The notes under the pieces are model-generated. The model was not told the origin of the DNA, did no database searches, and saw only the letters and a program-made list of their open reading frames with translations. Made by a program: the position numbers and the translations under genes. DNA of 5,071 bases, taken from NCBI GenBank assembly GCA_031282095.1, contig JAITEJ010000045.1, positions 1-5,071 on the forward strand. The letters run 5' to 3'. The DNA comes from Clostridiales bacterium. GTDB taxonomy: Bacteria > Bacillota_A > Clostridia > Christensenellales > CAG-917. Positions 1 to 5,071 of the stretch are shown piece by piece; within the stretch, counting starts at the first letter, position 1, and every line of letters starts with the position of its first letter.

Positions 1-324
1 AGCATGAAAATCAGCGGGGAAAAAATCTCTAGTAAGGGAAAGGACGACCGCAATATAATTACTTTGACATTCTCTCAGACATCGGAAAACGTTGCCGACT
101 ACGAGGAAAGTAATTTCGAAGAAAGTGAAAAAACGACTTATTCTTTCACATTTATAATAATAAACGACAGAATTGAAAATCTTAACTTTACAAAACGCAT
201 CGACTACACCGAAAACGGAGCAATCGATTCGGAGGTGTCCCACTTGAAGCTGACCATGACATACGGCATCGCCGCAATTCCTTTCCCGGCGGATTACGAG
301 AATTACAGGGAGCAACAATCTTAA
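1..324 (+). CDS. C-terminal part of an unrecognised protein (5' end outside window)
   Basis: This frame is open from the first base to a TAA at 322-324. The first Met codon, at 4-6, has only three bases before it and no visible ribosome-binding site, so the true start probably lies upstream and this is a tail of at least 107 residues. The visible part is hydrophilic and acidic in the first half. It then alternates charged and beta-branched residues (TYSFTFIIINDRIENLNF, then FTKRIDY), which suggests beta strands, as in the C-terminal domain of an exported or lipoprotein-type protein. No signal peptide, membrane segment or catalytic motif can be seen, and I do not recognise the family. It is the only plus-strand gene in the window and converges on dxs. 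A strong hairpin terminator follows 33 nt after the stop. The frame is probably real because of the clean coding composition and the correctly placed terminator; its function is unknown. Confidence 0.6.
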   Translation, partial: SMKISGEKISSKGKDDRNIITLTFSQTSENVADYEESNFEESEKTTYSFTFIIINDRIENLNFTKRIDYTENGAIDSEVSHLKLTMTYGIAAIPFPADYENYREQQS

Positions 325-395: not shown

Positions 396-447
396 ATTGC
401 GATGCGGCTGAGAGCGGTCTTTTTCCGACGTTAAGGCATATTTCGCC

Positions 448-569
448 TCATATGGGACGGTATTCTTACGGCTGTCAAGGCGGGAGAATACGGCAACCAT
501 CCTCTTTCAAACGTAAAGCCGTCTGTTCTCATGTTTTTTACCGTCATCAAAGGGATGGTATATATCGTT
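448..569 (-). repeat. Distal decayed tandem copy of the dxs 3' end (copy 2)
   Basis: On the minus strand this 122-bp unit contains a recognisable relic of the DXS C-terminus. In one frame it reads LPYSPALTAVRIPSHMR, comparable with YCRMSPALIAGRILSYMK at the true end of DXS. The anchor TCATAT sits at 448, 570 and 703 in the three copies. Compared with copy 1 this unit is 11 bp shorter around 495-505, where the AATACTCTGCC part has been lost. The leading segment TTTCAAACGTAAAGCCGTC, followed by ATGTTTTTTACCGTC, is nearly identical to that of copy 1. No start site or ribosome-binding site supports translation, and the short open frame at 431-619 crossing copies 1 and 2 shifts reading frame relative to DXS, so I treat it as non-coding relic. 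Confidence 0.75.
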
Positions 570-702
570 TCATATAGGACAGAATTTTCCCTGCCGTCAA
601 GGCGGAAGGATACGGGCAATACTCTGCCAATTTTTCACATTTCAAACGTAAAGCCGTCAATTCTTATGTTTTTTACCGTCGTCCGGGGGAGGATATGTCA
701 CT
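570..702 (-). repeat. Proximal decayed tandem copy of the dxs 3' end (copy 1)
   Basis: This 133-bp unit begins at the dxs stop codon. On the minus strand it encodes, in one frame, LAEYCPYPSALTAGKILSYMK, which is clearly related to LAEYCRMSPALIAGRILSYMK at the end of DXS. Over the last ~57 bp about four bases in five agree with dxs. The upstream part reads VKNIRIDGFTFEM before a TGA stop, weakly matching EMINIGVENGF in DXS and strongly matching copy 2. Frame shifts and the stop show that the copy is not translated as part of DXS. It is best explained as tandem duplication of the dxs tail followed by decay. A less likely reading is an interspersed repeat family that happens to resemble it. Confidence 0.75.
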
Positions 703-2380
703 TCATATAGGACAGTATTCTCCCGGCTATCAAGGCGGGCGACATACGGCAATACTCCGCGAGTTCGTCCTCGTCGGCGGTCGGTAAAAAGCCGTTTTCC
801 ACGCCTATGTTTATCATTTCCACGTTAAGCCCGCGCCCGCGGAAGAAAGAGGACACCGCCTGACCGAAGCCGCCTTGCAGCACATTATCCTCAACAGTCA
901 CTATCAAACTGTCCGACAGCGTAACGAGGGCTTTTTTGTCAAGAGGTTTAATGAATTTAGCGTTAACGACCGAACACATTATCCCGTTCTTCAACATAAT
1001 CTGCTCTACTTTCCTGCCTATTTCATAGCATTTAGCTCCCGCGGTGAGTATCGCTACCGTAGGCGCGGATGTCTTAACATCCCACTTGCCGAACGCAACC
1101 TCTCCGCAAGCATCCTCGTTTTTCCCCGCAGATTTCGGATACCTTATGGCGACTGTGCCGCCGAAGCTTTCCGTCCATGCCAGCATTTTTTTTAGTTCCG
1201 CCTTATTTTTCGGCGCAAGCACCGTCATATTGGGCATAAGAGACAAATAGCTTATGTCGAACACTCCCTGATGAGTTTCACCATCGCCGCCCACGAAACC
1301 GCTTCTGTCGATGAGAAAGGTCACGGGCAAGGAATCGGGCAAAACGTCGTGCAGTATCTGATCAAACGCGCGCTGTAAAAAGGTCGAATAGATCGCGACA
1401 TACGGGCGGTATCCCCCTCTCGCCAACGCCGCGGACATAGCGACGGCGTAACCTTCCGCTATGCCTACGTCGAAGAATCGCGACGGAAAGCGGCGGGCAA
1501 AATCAGACAGACCCGCGCCCTTTTTCATAGCGGCGGTAACTACGGTTATCTTGTCGTTTTTTAACGCCATATCGGACAGAGTTTTTCCCAACTCGGAGGC
1601 GAAAAAATCGATAGGCGGCGCAACGGAATGGAAACTCTCCGGCGCGCTTTCGGCGGGCGCGTAGCCCTTGCCCTTAAGCGTATTTACGCGTACCGCCACA
1701 TGTCCGTCCAATGTCTTCAATTGCCCGAACGTCAAAATCATCTCCTGCAGGTCATGCCCGTCCAAGCTGCCGGCATAGCGGAAGCCGTATTCCGAGAATA
1801 TGTCGCCGCTTTCCTTCAGGCGTTCGGAAATCATGCCCGTACTGCCGCTTATGGTCATGCCGTTGTCGTTTAGGATAAGCAGCAGATTGTGAGGAACGGA
1901 CGTTATGTCGTTCAACGCTTCCTGAGTCAGACCGTTCGGGAAAGCTCCGTCGCCCACCACCGCGACTATCCGGTTATTGAGTCCGCTCAGTACCTCCGCG
2001 CGCATATATCCCGCCGCCGAGGGAAGCGCGGTGCCTGCGTGACCGGCGTCCGCCGCGTCGAAAGGGCTCTCCGACGCGTTTACGAAGCCGGATACGCCTC
2101 CTTGCTTGCGCAAGTCCTTAAATCTGTCCGCGCGCCCCGTAAGCAGCTTGTGCGCGTAGCATTGATGCCCGACGTCGAATAAAATTTTATCGTCGGGAGC
2201 GTCGAATATGTAATGCAGCGCGACGGTCAACTCAACCGCCCCTAAGTTGGACGCTAAATGTCCGCCGTTTTTCAACGTAACGGCGGTTATTTCCTTTCTC
2301 AGCTCCGCGCAAAGAGCTGTAAGTTCATCCGCGTTCATCTTTTTGATGTCAGCGGGAGTTTTTATTTCGTTTAGCGTCAT
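698..2380 (-). CDS. dxs: 1-deoxy-D-xylulose-5-phosphate synthase, compact form
   Basis: DXS condenses pyruvate and glyceraldehyde 3-phosphate, using thiamine diphosphate and Mg2+, in the first step of the methylerythritol phosphate route to isoprenoids; it is cytosolic. The 560-residue product shows the family landmarks in order: GGH (39-41), DVGHQ (69-73), the thiamine-phosphate/metal motif GDGA (143-146) with NDN (171-173), DGHD (207-210), the catalytic Glu309 in IAEGYAV, YSTFLQR (331-337), DRSGFVGGDGETHQG (358-372, holding the Arg, Asp and His of the active site), IRYPK (412-416) and the C-terminal AKFIKPLD and EDNVLQGGFG. It is about 60 residues shorter than the E. coli enzyme, mostly because ~48 residues are missing near 182-192, where E. 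coli has a flexible helical insert. The usual AEQH is AEGY, and GHSSTSIS is GHAGTALP. I chose the ATG at 2378-2380 for its AGAGGAGAG upstream and for alignment with known N-termini; an in-frame TTG at 2414-2416 would add 12 residues. The start overlaps oapA by 32 nt. Confidence 0.95.
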   Translation of the reverse strand: MTLNEIKTPADIKKMNADELTALCAELRKEITAVTLKNGGHLASNLGAVELTVALHYIFDAPDDKILFDVGHQCYAHKLLTGRADRFKDLRKQGGVSGFVNASESPFDAADAGHAGTALPSAAGYMRAEVLSGLNNRIVAVVGDGAFPNGLTQEALNDITSVPHNLLLILNDNGMTISGSTGMISERLKESGDIFSEYGFRYAGSLDGHDLQEMILTFGQLKTLDGHVAVRVNTLKGKGYAPAESAPESFHSVAPPIDFFASELGKTLSDMALKNDKITVVTAAMKKGAGLSDFARRFPSRFFDVGIAEGYAVAMSAALARGGYRPYVAIYSTFLQRAFDQILHDVLPDSLPVTFLIDRSGFVGGDGETHQGVFDISYLSLMPNMTVLAPKNKAELKKMLAWTESFGGTVAIRYPKSAGKNEDACGEVAFGKWDVKTSAPTVAILTAGAKCYEIGRKVEQIMLKNGIMCSVVNAKFIKPLDKKALVTLSDSLIVTVEDNVLQGGFGQAVSSFFRGRGLNVEMINIGVENGFLPTADEDELAEYCRMSPALIAGRILSYMK

Positions 2381-3107
2381 TTTTATTTTTTCTCTCCTCT
2401 CGACTGAAAACGGCAAGTATGCGGGCGACGAACAGCACGAAATTCCTAGAATTCGATATTGCCACGTTCTTCATGTATGCCTTGCCTCCGATCGTGAGCG
2501 CGCCTACTATACCGGATATCATTATAGTAAGAAGCTGCTGATATGTTTCCGAGGTAAAGTGTAAAATTTTCAAAACTATCAAAAGAGAACAGGTTCCCGA
2601 CACTATGCCGAATATGTCTCCTATGACATCGTTGCATATGTTCGCCACCTTTTCGGCGTTTTTGACAAGCTTAAGCGCGGTTTTCGCTCCGTGAACCCTG
2701 CGCGCCGCCATGGATGCCAAAGGAGCCGGATCGCACGCCGTGACCGCCACGCCTATGCCGTCGAACAGCACGCTGGCAAGCACAAGAAACAGCAGCAGCA
2801 AAGCGATGACGACTATGTTGCCGGAACCGGCGAGGTCGGACAAAAAGGTGACGAACACCGTCAGCGGAAAGGAAATAAGCGTGATCTTCAACGCCCAATG
2901 CTCCTTCTTTTTTAAAGCTTTCGCGTACGGTCTGGACGTCTTCCTCGCCGCCGCCCTCGCATTTTCGGCGCGCCTTACCGCCGCGTCCGCGCGCGGCTCC
3001 GCTTTACGAACTGTCTGATGCGTAACGACGGGCTGAGGCTCCTCCGCCCCGAAGCCGTCGTCCTGCAGCAAAGGCTGCTCTTCAATTGTTTTTTCCGAAT
3101 CTTCCAT
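2349..3107 (-). CDS. oapA: DUF21-like membrane protein, probable OLE-associated protein OapA
   Basis: The 252-residue product has a hydrophilic N-terminus, acidic at 1-25 and then very basic and Ala/Arg-rich at 32-70. Four hydrophobic segments follow, at about 72-92, 96-124, 163-184 and 190-211, and a Lys/Arg/Asn-rich tail ends it. The cytoplasmic stretch at 116-160 (FDGIGVAVTACDPAPLASMAARRVHGAKTALKLVKNAEKVANICND, described by its pieces VTACDPAPL, GAKTALKLVKN and AEKV) follows the pattern of the DUF21 domain of CNNM/CorC-type proteins, where small-residue-rich helices precede 'AKxALKLxxNxEK'. A DUF21 protein directly downstream of a large structured RNA, and next to dxs, is the known signature of OapA, which binds OLE RNA and anchors it at the membrane. 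No CBS or CorC domain is present, so a full magnesium exporter is unlikely. No good ribosome-binding site precedes the ATG at 3105-3107. The end overlaps dxs by 32 nt, suggesting one operon. The DUF21 and OapA assignments rest on pattern and context, not on a search. Confidence 0.75.
   Translation of the reverse strand: MEDSEKTIEEQPLLQDDGFGAEEPQPVVTHQTVRKAEPRADAAVRRAENARAAARKTSRPYAKALKKKEHWALKITLISFPLTVFVTFLSDLAGSGNIVVIALLLLFLVLASVLFDGIGVAVTACDPAPLASMAARRVHGAKTALKLVKNAEKVANICNDVIGDIFGIVSGTCSLLIVLKILHFTSETYQQLLTIMISGIVGALTIGGKAYMKNVAISNSRNFVLFVARILAVFSREERKNKNDAKRNKNSR
2390..2398 (-). promoter_or_regulatory. Ribosome-binding site of dxs, inside the oapA coding sequence
   Basis: The minus strand reads AGAGGAGAG here, followed by an A-rich 9-nt spacer (11 nt counted from the GGAGAG core) and the dxs ATG at 2380. 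It is the strongest Shine-Dalgarno match in the window and decides the ATG over the upstream TTG. It lies within the last codons of oapA, so ribosomes finishing oapA pass over it, which favours translational coupling. Confidence 0.75.
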
Positions 3108-3252
3108 AATTAAATATTTTATAAATCCGCAAAACGTTTCTCTTTTCCCGGAGAGAACGCGATAATACGGAAAGAACTTTCATGCGGTCGCCGTGAACGT
3201 ATTTCAGCCGCGAACTGAAGTGTTCCGCGCGAAGCGGATGATAAACGCATTT
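3108..3252 (-). other. Leader region of oapA with two small hairpins
   Basis: The ~145 nt between the terminator and oapA hold no convincing gene. On the minus strand there are two adjacent hairpins: TCCGC/GCGGA with loop TTCGC, and TTCAG/CTGAA with loop TTCGCGG, the latter inside an outer GAAC/GTTC pair. An AT-rich TATAAAATATTTAAT lies just before the oapA ATG but has no well-placed -35 box. A 33-codon frame starts with ATG near 3183 and runs into oapA (see findings). Confidence 0.4.
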
Positions 3253-3302
3253 TAAAAAGAGGAAATTCGGCGGAGCTTCAGCAAAGCGCGCCCATTTCCT
3301 CT
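3253..3302 (-). terminator. Intrinsic terminator between OLE RNA and oapA
   Basis: On the minus strand a perfect 9-bp stem AGAGGAAAT/ATTTCCTCT (plus-strand arms 3294-3302 and 3258-3266) closes over inner GC-rich pairs, including GCTT-TGCTG-AAGC, and is followed directly by TTTTT and then AAAA. The stem is long and the U-run well placed. It lies ~50 nt beyond the last paired domain of the OLE RNA and ~150 nt before oapA. It could end the RNA as a separate transcript or partly attenuate oapA-dxs. It may also be a 3'-terminal helix that belongs to the RNA. Confidence 0.7.
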
Positions 3303-3349
3303 CCGCAAGCACGACAAAAACCGACGGCTTTTATCGCGTTAAGAAACAA

Positions 3350-3930
3350 AATCAGTGGCGGTGCGCCGGATAAACCTTGCGTCTTCAGGTTCGGTAGGCT
3401 TTCCCGCGGGGGCGACTCACCGTCGCCGTTTGAGGAGTTTCCTATTACACCCCCGCACGCAGGGTTTCCCGCTGCGTAACCGAATCGCCACTTAGAACAC
3501 ACTATAATCCCCGACGCACCTCGTCAGAACAGTCTAGAAGTTTTCCTTGACAGACAAAACCGCTCCTTATCCTTTTTTGCAGAACAGCTTTCATCGGGCA
3601 ATCGCGCACCGCCGTCTGCCGACGGTTTTGCGCGTGTTCCCGAATTCCGCATACTCCGCTCAAGACAGGCTACTCTGCACACAGCGTAAGGCAAATTGCC
3701 CTCACCGCATTGCAGGTTGTCACTATGCAGTAGTTTCACCCACCCGCATAGGCCTCCGCGAAAGTTGGGTCGATTTTCGTATGCCGTTACGACCCGCCCA
3801 AAATCCTTTACTCCCAGCAGCAACACCCGTTTGGGCAACGAACGCCGCCACCAGAAACTTCATCGATGTGCCCTTCGGCGATATTTTACCTCCGCCTCCG
3901 GAACGGAAAGCCTGACTAGAATACTGCGCC
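3350..3930 (-). ncRNA. ole: OLE RNA (ornate, large, extremophilic RNA), boundaries approximate
   Basis: OLE is a ~600-nt conserved RNA of Firmicutes. With OapA, OapB and other partners it forms a membrane-associated ribonucleoprotein; in Bacillus halodurans its loss gives sensitivity to alcohols, cold and elevated Mg2+. Here ~580 GC-rich nt on the minus strand have no credible gene but fold densely. Plus-strand helix arms are: 3670-3674 with 3729-3733, enclosing hairpin 3684-3708; hairpin 3767-3795 (GGGTCG/CGACCC); a long hairpin 3594-3643 (TCGGG, then GCGCA, then a CCGTC/GACGG tip); and a 3' domain closed by 3354-3360 with 3486-3492. That domain contains an inner TTCGGT/ACCGAA helix, a hairpin at 3457-3477 with a GAAA loop on the minus strand only, and the 6-bp hairpin 3411-3427. 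The GNRA loop fixes the strand. Size, orientation and the downstream DUF21 gene plus dxs match known OLE loci. I could not recall the consensus well enough to align it base by base. A different, undescribed RNA remains possible. Confidence 0.75.
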
Positions 3931-3935
3931 ACCGC

Positions 3936-3964
3936 ATTATAGTATACACGTATTACGTCAAAAA
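3936..3964 (-). promoter_or_regulatory. Probable sigma-A promoter of OLE RNA
   Basis: The minus strand carries a perfect TATAAT (3936-3941). Upstream is TTGACG (3956-3961), which would be near-consensus but with a short 14-nt spacer; TTTTTG (3959-3964) gives a 17-nt spacer with a poorer hexamer. Transcription would start near 3929-3930, giving about 580 nt to the end of the 3' domain, the size expected of OLE RNA. The spacer ambiguity may mean modest or regulated activity. Confidence 0.55.
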
Positions 3965-4255
3965 GTAAAACGAGATTTACGCCTGCGCGTAAAAATCCTT
4001 TGATTGTTTTAATCTTATGTAATATTATATTAAGGTTGTGCAAAAATTTTGCGTATAACTCGGATATTTTCAAACCTGACCGCGGTAAAACGGTACGACG
4101 CCGCCCGTCGGCATATCCGTTTTTACCGTCTGCGTTTATACGGTACACCGTTTAAACCGTATCCCGAAATCTTTTGCCGGCTTCTCGTTGCCGCTTAATT
4201 GACCGTTCCTTATGCGGGAATCATATACACCGAGTCAAAACCTCATCAATCCCCG
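3965..4255. other. Palindrome-rich gap with no convincing gene
   Basis: No open frame here has a ribosome-binding site or protein-like composition. The stretch holds several inverted repeats: GATTTACGC against GCGTAAAAATC near 3974-3997 (two-base bulge); the 13-nt odd palindrome GCAAAAATTTTGC at 4040-4052; a long hairpin 4084-4127 (GGTAAAACGG with CCGTTTTTACC, GC-rich interior); and ATACGGT/ACCGTAT at 4138-4162. An AT-rich run at about 4010-4032 includes a TATAAT on the minus strand without a good -35. It may be regulatory DNA for the OLE promoter, or a second structured leader. Confidence 0.4.
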
Positions 4256-4379: not shown

Positions 4380-5071
4380 TCAGAAAATCCCTTCGGGAAG
4401 CTTGTTCGTCCAAAAAGCAGGGGCTTTTATGTTCAGCGCGTACGCTACGATAGCGGCTATATCCTTCATGGTTGCGTCCCCTATCGTCCCTTTTTTTACG
4501 GTCTTACCGGCTACGCCTAGAAAACAGTTCATTTCCTCCGGAGTAGTTCCGCCGTGTCCGCCCGCCGGAGTGTGTCCGTGATCGGGGGTCACGATAAAAA
4601 GCGTGTCGTCCAACCAACCCAGTTCCTCATATTTATCGTAAATCCATCCGATGTATTCGTCCTCTTGTGCGATGGTGTTCAAATAGATATCGCTTGCGCT
4701 GCCGTGGGCATGTCCGGCGTGATCTACGTTATCAAAATGTACGTATAAAAATTTGGGGTCGTTGCCATTATCCAAATAGTTTAAAACTTTATTCGCAATG
4801 ACGGAGTCGGAAATCGGCTCCGGAATTGCACCTTGAAGCATATAACCGTCCAAGAACACGTCCACATCGTATTCTATAAACGCCCAAATCGCAAAGAAAT
4901 AACAAATCGCCGCTTGTTCAGCGCCGGGATACGCGTCGGAGATCAGCTTAAATAACGAATAAATGCCCTCCGGTTCACGTTTATCAGGATTACGTATCTC
5001 ATTGCTAAGACTATAAAAATATGAATACCATGCATTCGTATACGCTGAATCGTTGTCCCATCCGTGTACCT
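4380..5071 (-). CDS. Alkaline-phosphatase-superfamily hydrolase, C-terminal part (5' end outside window)
   Basis: The frame is open from the window edge (first full codon at 5067-5069) to a TGA at 4380-4382, giving 229 visible residues starting VHGWDNDSAY. It belongs to the alkaline phosphatase superfamily, most like type I phosphodiesterase/nucleotide pyrophosphatase proteins, which hydrolyse phosphomono- or diesters using two metal ions. The metal-binding motifs are clear: DNVDHAGH (visible residues 113-120) supplies an Asp and a His, TPDHGH (161-166) the Asp-His pair, and GGHGG (171-173 region) the last His. The nucleophilic Ser or Thr and any signal peptide would lie in the missing N-terminal half, so substrate and location cannot be told. 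A GTG at 4863-4865 could be mistaken for a start, but the frame continues upstream with protein-like sequence (AAICYFFAIWAFIEYD). It is transcribed leftward with its own terminator and is probably unrelated to the OLE operon. Confidence 0.85.
   Translation of the reverse strand, partial: VHGWDNDSAYTNAWYSYFYSLSNEIRNPDKREPEGIYSLFKLISDAYPGAEQAAICYFFAIWAFIEYDVDVFLDGYMLQGAIPEPISDSVIANKVLNYLDNGNDPKFLYVHFDNVDHAGHAHGSASDIYLNTIAQEDEYIGWIYDKYEELGWLDDTLFIVTPDHGHTPAGGHGGTTPEEMNCFLGVAGKTVKKGTIGDATMKDIAAIVAYALNIKAPAFWTNKLPEGIF

What the first reader, a model, noticed from the sequence alone, without database searches (positions are those of the whole stretch)
2349..3930. An OLE RNA-OapA ribonucleoprotein locus linked to dxs
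Seen: a ~580-nt gene-free, heavily paired minus-strand stretch with a consensus -10 box, followed by a four-segment membrane protein with a DUF21-like middle, followed by dxs. Known: OLE RNA genes in Firmicutes lie directly upstream of oapA (DUF21) and often near isoprenoid genes. Inferred: this is an OLE locus, possibly in an uncultured, non-extremophile Clostridia member, which would widen the range of the system.
Basis: partly seen in the sequence, partly recalled or inferred. Interest (0 to 1): 0.85.

Follow-up and report, generated by a model that had tools for sequence, protein, structure and literature searches.

The report
Ordinary OLE RNA and OapA locus
The window holds a complete gene for OLE RNA, a large bacterial RNA known from other work to act at the cell membrane, followed by its usual membrane-protein partner OapA and the isoprenoid gene dxs; it is a clear further example of a known system, in an uncultured relative of Clostridia, and not a new kind of thing.

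Summary
Window 3948-3339 (minus strand) matches the Rfam OLE model over its full length, 418.9 bits against a cut-off of 50, E 9.7e-121. Of 159 model base pairs, 136 are standard, and 41 of those differ from the consensus on both sides. The 252-aa protein downstream is OapA: Pfam CNNM (formerly DUF21), the DxxxD motif, 84% identity to the protein beside OLE in a Clostridiaceae MAG, and a predicted fold closest to CorB/CorC transporters. dxs follows and overlaps oapA by 32 nt. The order is standard: of named OLE loci with enough sequence, 82 of 85 have an OapA match and 47 of 56 have dxs downstream. The claim that this widens the range fails: OLE is already reported in 2,822 Bacillota genomes, uncultured gut lineages included (PMC11332333, results read), and 35 of 43 genomes in the nearest relative's family carry it. 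It is a new member of a known kind, of low interest. One side observation may be worth more: a Paenibacillaceae MAG with an intact OLE RNA and no OapA found.

The parts
3339..3948 (-). OLE RNA gene (model extent; predicted transcript start about 3933)
   Evidence: Rfam RF01071, 418.9 bits, E 9.7e-121, model 1-616 of 616; 136 of 159 pairs standard, 41 with changes on both sides against the consensus
3941..3969 (-). likely OLE promoter: TTTACT (3969-3964), 17-nt spacer, TATACT (3946-3941)
   Evidence: listed (9 of 12 matches); TTTACA-17-TATACT at the same place in relative L085 (alignment); inferred, not shown to work
3250..3304 (-). terminator-like hairpin with a run of five T (partly in the stem) between OLE and oapA
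   Evidence: fold -24.2 kcal/mol, z -3.06, 1 of 200 shuffles as good; not listed by the simple terminator scan, and poorly kept in L085
2349..3107 (-). oapA, 252 aa, CNNM/DUF21-like membrane protein with DxxxD (D160, D164)
698..2380 (-). [quoted passage not shown]
   Evidence: TIGR00204 546.1 bits over cut-off 465.95; start and length
4380..5069 (-). 3' part of a phosphodiesterase/sulfatase-superfamily gene upstream of OLE, open at the window edge
   Evidence: Pfam Phosphodiest 44.9 bits; the relative has a full-length gene of this family between ispA and OLE

Best explanation
This is a standard OLE ribonucleoprotein locus of an uncultured Clostridia relative. An OLE RNA of about 590 nt is transcribed, probably from its own promoter just upstream, folds into the conserved OLE structure and, by analogy with published work, dimerises and is held at the cell membrane by OapA, a CNNM-like homologue of divalent-metal transporters encoded next door. 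The complex most likely helps manage divalent metals and stress (cold, alcohol, Mg2+, carbon source), as others showed in Halalkalibacterium halodurans. dxs overlaps the end of oapA and is probably translated from the same message. Shown here: RNA identity, OapA identity and predicted fold, gene order. Inferred: promoter, expression, binding, membrane location, physiological role.
Against: No expression, binding or localisation data. The Pfam CNNM score is barely over its cut-off, and the L085 copy is under it (26.1 against 28.4). The AlphaFold model is middling (mean pLDDT 68.9, residues 1-62 under 50), Foldseek's best E-value is 0.013, and a PDB sequence search found no relative of OapA. An L7Ae-family protein (OapC type) was not found in the nearest relative's genome, so a partner essential in H. 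halodurans may be missing, or the assembly is incomplete. 17 of 159 model pairs are non-standard and 6 gapped. The published OLE-MpfA anticorrelation is not seen inside this family: CorC_HlyC is in 1 of 43 genomes, that one (G024) also has OLE and OapA, and the 8 genomes without OLE lack it too. No genome is held for the window, so partner proteins were tested only in relatives.
Confidence: 0.97

Rival explanations
1. The RNA is an OLE relic: a decaying copy that no longer functions in this organism.
For: The score is toward the low end of the 15 named loci scored (418.9; range 389-578), and no OapC-type protein was found in the nearest relative's genome.
Against: 222 of 249 strongly conserved positions kept and 41 two-sided pair changes; 89% DNA identity to L085 over a 713-nt block with OLE, while the stretch between OLE and oapA hardly aligns, which suggests selection on the RNA; OapA keeps all eight fully invariant residues; OLE in 35 of 43 family genomes.
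Confidence: 0.02
2. The membrane protein is a plain CNNM/MpfA-type ion transporter that happens to lie near an RNA, not OapA.
For: CNNM Pfam match and CorB/CorC-like predicted fold.
Against: It has DxxxD, shows no CBS or CorC_HlyC match, aligns with OLE-linked OapA proteins at the invariant columns and sits in the usual slot between OLE and dxs.
Confidence: 0.01
3. The structured stretch is another large RNA or an mRNA leader of oapA.
For: It lies upstream of oapA on the same strand.
Against: Among 4227 Rfam families the only match at E up to 1 in the window is OLE, over its full length.
Confidence: 0.001

Closest known systems
OLE RNA-OapA locus of L085 (JAITPR010000030.1, Clostridiaceae bacterium isolate Pq454_bin33)
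   Same: OLE-oapA-dxs with a phosphodiesterase gene upstream; OapA 84% and Dxs 81% identical, DNA 89% identical over a 713-nt block with OLE.
   Different: Longer spacer between OLE and oapA (535 nt against 231 nt); no match after dxs to the window's repeats of the dxs tail.
OLE RNP of Halalkalibacterium halodurans (PMC9723947 and PMC10898510, passages; PMC12265935, part of the introduction and section 6)
   Same: OLE RNA with oapA next to it and dxs often adjacent; OapB and bS21 homologues in the nearest relative.
   Different: No OapC-type protein found in the nearest relative; the window OapA has a 60-70 residue N-terminal extension that several named OapA proteins lack; a phosphodiesterase gene precedes OLE. 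Sequences of H. halodurans itself were not compared.
Clostridium acetobutylicum OLE, 577 nt, cryo-EM dimer (PMC12286853, passages)
   Same: Same RNA class in a clostridium.
   Different: Not compared at sequence level here.
OLE variant 1 (TANB77) and variant 2 (RF39) (PMC11332333, results read)
   Same: Same class; uncultured hosts.
   Different: The window RNA covers the whole 616-position model with 610 nt, so by length it is of the full-length type; the helix names P7-P9 were not mapped.
MpfA/CorB/CorC CNNM Mg2+ transporters (7m1t, 7cff)
   Different: No CBS or CorC_HlyC match; has DxxxD.

Membership tests
OLE RNA (RF01071) | Full-length covariance model match over the gathering score | tested here: met
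   418.9 bits against 50, model 1-616
OLE RNA (RF01071) | Conserved secondary structure kept by compensatory change | tested here: met
   136 of 159 pairs standard, 17 non-standard, 6 gapped; 41 two-sided changes; shuffles reach at most 80. The alignment was fitted to the model, so the count leans towards it
OLE RNA (RF01071) | Highly conserved nucleotides | tested here: met
   222 of 249 upper-case consensus positions identical
OLE RNA (RF01071) | oapA next downstream, often with dxs | tested here: met
   oapA 2349-3107, then dxs; 82 of 85 and 47 of 56 named loci alike
OLE RNA (RF01071) | Membrane-located RNP, dimeric RNA | not testable with these tools
   needs experiment
OapA | CNNM/DUF21-related membrane domain | tested here: met
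OapA | DxxxD motif | tested here: met
   D160 and D164, invariant in 89 of 89 aligned proteins
OapA | Four transmembrane helices | tested here: met
   four long helices in the model; membrane insertion itself not tested
OapA | Lacks the conserved CNNM proline | not tested
   the position was not identified in my alignment
OapA | Binds OLE RNA | not testable with these tools
   needs experiment
MpfA (CNNM + CBS + CorC_HlyC) | CBS and CorC_HlyC domains | tested here: not met
   no such Pfam match to the 252-aa protein at E up to 10
OLE RNP partners OapB, OapC, bS21 | Genes present in the same genome | tested here: inconclusive
   window genome not held; in the relative G002 OapB and bS21 found, OapC-type L7Ae not; L7Ae in 32 and bS21 in 37 of 43 family genomes

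The most novel reading that the evidence does not exclude
In this lineage OLE RNA is made as a stand-alone transcript with its own promoter and terminator, and works with OapA, OapB and bS21 but without OapC: a reduced RNP around a full-length OLE RNA.
Probability: 0.2. Interest if true: 0.3.

Novelty: new member of a known kind. Interest (0 to 1): 0.15.

Why it matters
OLE RNAs are among the largest structured RNAs of unknown biochemical function. One more divergent, complete example with its OapA helps alignments and structure work, but by itself changes neither the known range nor the mechanism. The OLE-without-OapA genome seen in passing could matter more if it is real, because PMC11332333 describes the two as almost completely mutually inclusive.

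Tried and rejected
Truncated OLE in the family: G013, G015, G019 and G022 matched mainly model 278-595 and G004 gave a 438-nt hit, which looked like a shortened variant. All five hits end within about 40 nt of a contig end, so I take them for assembly edges.

Stop codons in OapC-type genes: 10 of 33 L7Ae hits carried one TAG inside and one a TAA, which looked like recoding. I translated those 11 and one without a stop: the stops fall at the end of the gene with the alignment running on, so this is ordinary.

Habitat: searches for Pq454 or JAITPR and for 'OLE RNA' with 'termite' gave nothing usable; habitat left open.

OLE on viruses: an exact core pattern in the viral contigs gave no match; an exact pattern misses diverged copies.

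PDB sequence searches with OapA found no relative; the link to CorB shows in Pfam and in the fold comparison. A loose motif count (6 of 89) used a badly written pattern and is not evidence; the column table of the same call is. The promoter/terminator scan did not list the hairpin at 3304-3250, and its terminator count (3) was below the shuffles' mean of 3.5.

The OapA alignment A1 holds 40 of the 120 listed homologues (601 found), chosen by me.

Full report
The window is 5071 nt and no whole genome is held for it. On its minus strand lie, in order of transcription, the 3' part of a phosphodiesterase-superfamily gene (5069-4380), a gap, the stretch in question, a 252-aa membrane protein (3107-2349) and dxs (2380-698).

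The RNA. A scan of both strands against all 4227 Rfam families at E up to 1 gave one match: OLE, RF01071, 3948-3339 minus, 418.9 bits, E 9.7e-121, model 1-616 complete. I scored that alignment pair by pair: of 159 model pairs 136 are standard, 17 are not and 6 have a gap; 41 of the standard pairs differ from the consensus on both sides and 21 on one. Shuffling the window letters gives a mean of 60 standard pairs (maximum 80 in 500); dealing out partners anew gives 62 (maximum 77). Of 249 strongly conserved consensus letters 222 are identical. Fifteen of the 120 named OLE loci, chosen by me, range from 389 to 578 bits. By length (610 nt over 616 positions) this is the full-length type rather than the shortened variants of PMC11332333 (results and discussion read).

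Promoter and end. TTTACT-17-TATACT (3969-3941) is nearly kept there (TTTACA-17-TATACT) and would start transcription at about 3933, where the conserved letters of OLE begin. A hairpin with a T run at 3304-3250 (-24.2 kcal/mol, z -3.06) may end the RNA before oapA, but it is poorly kept in L085 and was not listed by the terminator scan. Both are inferences.

The neighbourhood. Of the 85 with more than 1900 nt downstream, 82 have an OapA match (not L032, L049, L064); of the 56 with more than 3500 nt, 47 have dxs downstream. L085 (JAITPR010000030.1, Clostridiaceae bacterium Pq454_bin33) is the close relative: OapA 84%, Dxs 81%, with folD, xseA, ispA and a phosphodiesterase gene before OLE, then oapA and dxs. 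An OapA tree joins the window with L085 at full support; their wider place among Clostridia is weakly supported. The dxs ATG at 2380 lies 32 nt inside the end of oapA, so the two are probably translated from one message.

The system in the relatives. In the family of the L085 genome (G002) 35 of 43 genomes have OLE and 36 have OapA: 34 both, 1 OLE only (G016), 2 OapA only (G014, G043), 6 neither. By their coordinates the three single cases sit at contig ends. CorC_HlyC, the mark of MpfA, is in 1 of 43. That fits the published rarity of MpfA in OLE-bearing clades, but not an anticorrelation within the family: the one genome with it, G024, also has OLE and OapA, and the 8 genomes without OLE lack it too. 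Spo0A_C is in 38 of 43, bS21 in 37 and an L7Ae-family protein of OapC type in 32, but not in G002. G002 has an 89-aa protein just upstream of infA (the gene before it I recognised as map by eye) that matches the solved OLE-associated protein B at E 9.6e-10. Completeness of these assemblies is not told, so absences are weak evidence, and they concern relatives, not the window's own genome.

How it works. By analogy with H. halodurans, where others have shown it, OLE RNA is held at the membrane by OapA and the complex supports growth under cold, alcohol, Mg2+ and carbon-source stress (PMC12265935, first part of the introduction and section 6 read; PMC10898510 and PMC9723947, passages seen; PMC12054373, abstract and one section read). 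Nothing here tests function.

Novelty. PMC11332333 reports 2,822 Bacillota hits for OLE and names uncultured gut lineages among them; PMC12286853 (passages) solved an OLE from Clostridium acetobutylicum; and the pattern scan found OLE in records of Christensenella, yak colon and goat cecum. The window is a new member of a known kind.

Aside. L032, a Paenibacillaceae MAG, has a full-length OLE (519 bits) lying directly between ispA and dxs with no oapA in its slot, and a profile search of its 4.1-Mb genome found no OapA, while 5 of the 5 other genomes in the same search had one. The results section of PMC11332333 speaks of apparently defective OLE genes in organisms without OapA; by score this one does not look defective. 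It may be an assembly fault or an incomplete genome, and is left as a lead.

Noticed in passing
L032 5262-4595 (-), between ispA 6290-5379 and dxs 4610-2691: Full-length OLE RNA (519 bits) with no oapA between it and dxs, and no OapA found in the 4.1-Mb genome, against the near-complete OLE-OapA pairing of PMC11332333. Could be a MAG fault; completeness not told.
   Followed up: partly
window 435-748: Three imperfect 59-nt copies (76% and 73% to the first; spacing 122 and 133), the last one at the 3' end of dxs, running on downstream of the gene; the stretch after dxs in the relative gives no matching copies.
   Followed up: partly
window 4380-5069; L155 9720-10742: A phosphodiesterase-superfamily gene lies between ispA and OLE in the relative and precedes OLE in the window; in many other named loci ispA begins about 900-1100 nt before the OLE core pattern, leaving no room for it.
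   Followed up: partly
window 3941-4030: About 90 nt upstream of OLE are well conserved with L085 although the sequence further upstream aligns poorly; may be regulatory.
   Followed up: no
L049, L064, L091: OLE with no OapA match in the held stretch although each genome has an OapA; L091 has only 1683 nt downstream. Whether OapA lies on the same contig was not determined; OLE and oapA may be unlinked there.
   Followed up: partly
L120 and L091: OLE in records labelled Candidatus Atribacteria and Actinobacteria; PMC11332333 suggests gene transfer or assembly errors for hits outside Bacillota.
   Followed up: no
window 4-324 (+): 106-aa open frame with no Pfam (E up to 10) or NCBIfam (E up to 1) match.
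   Followed up: no
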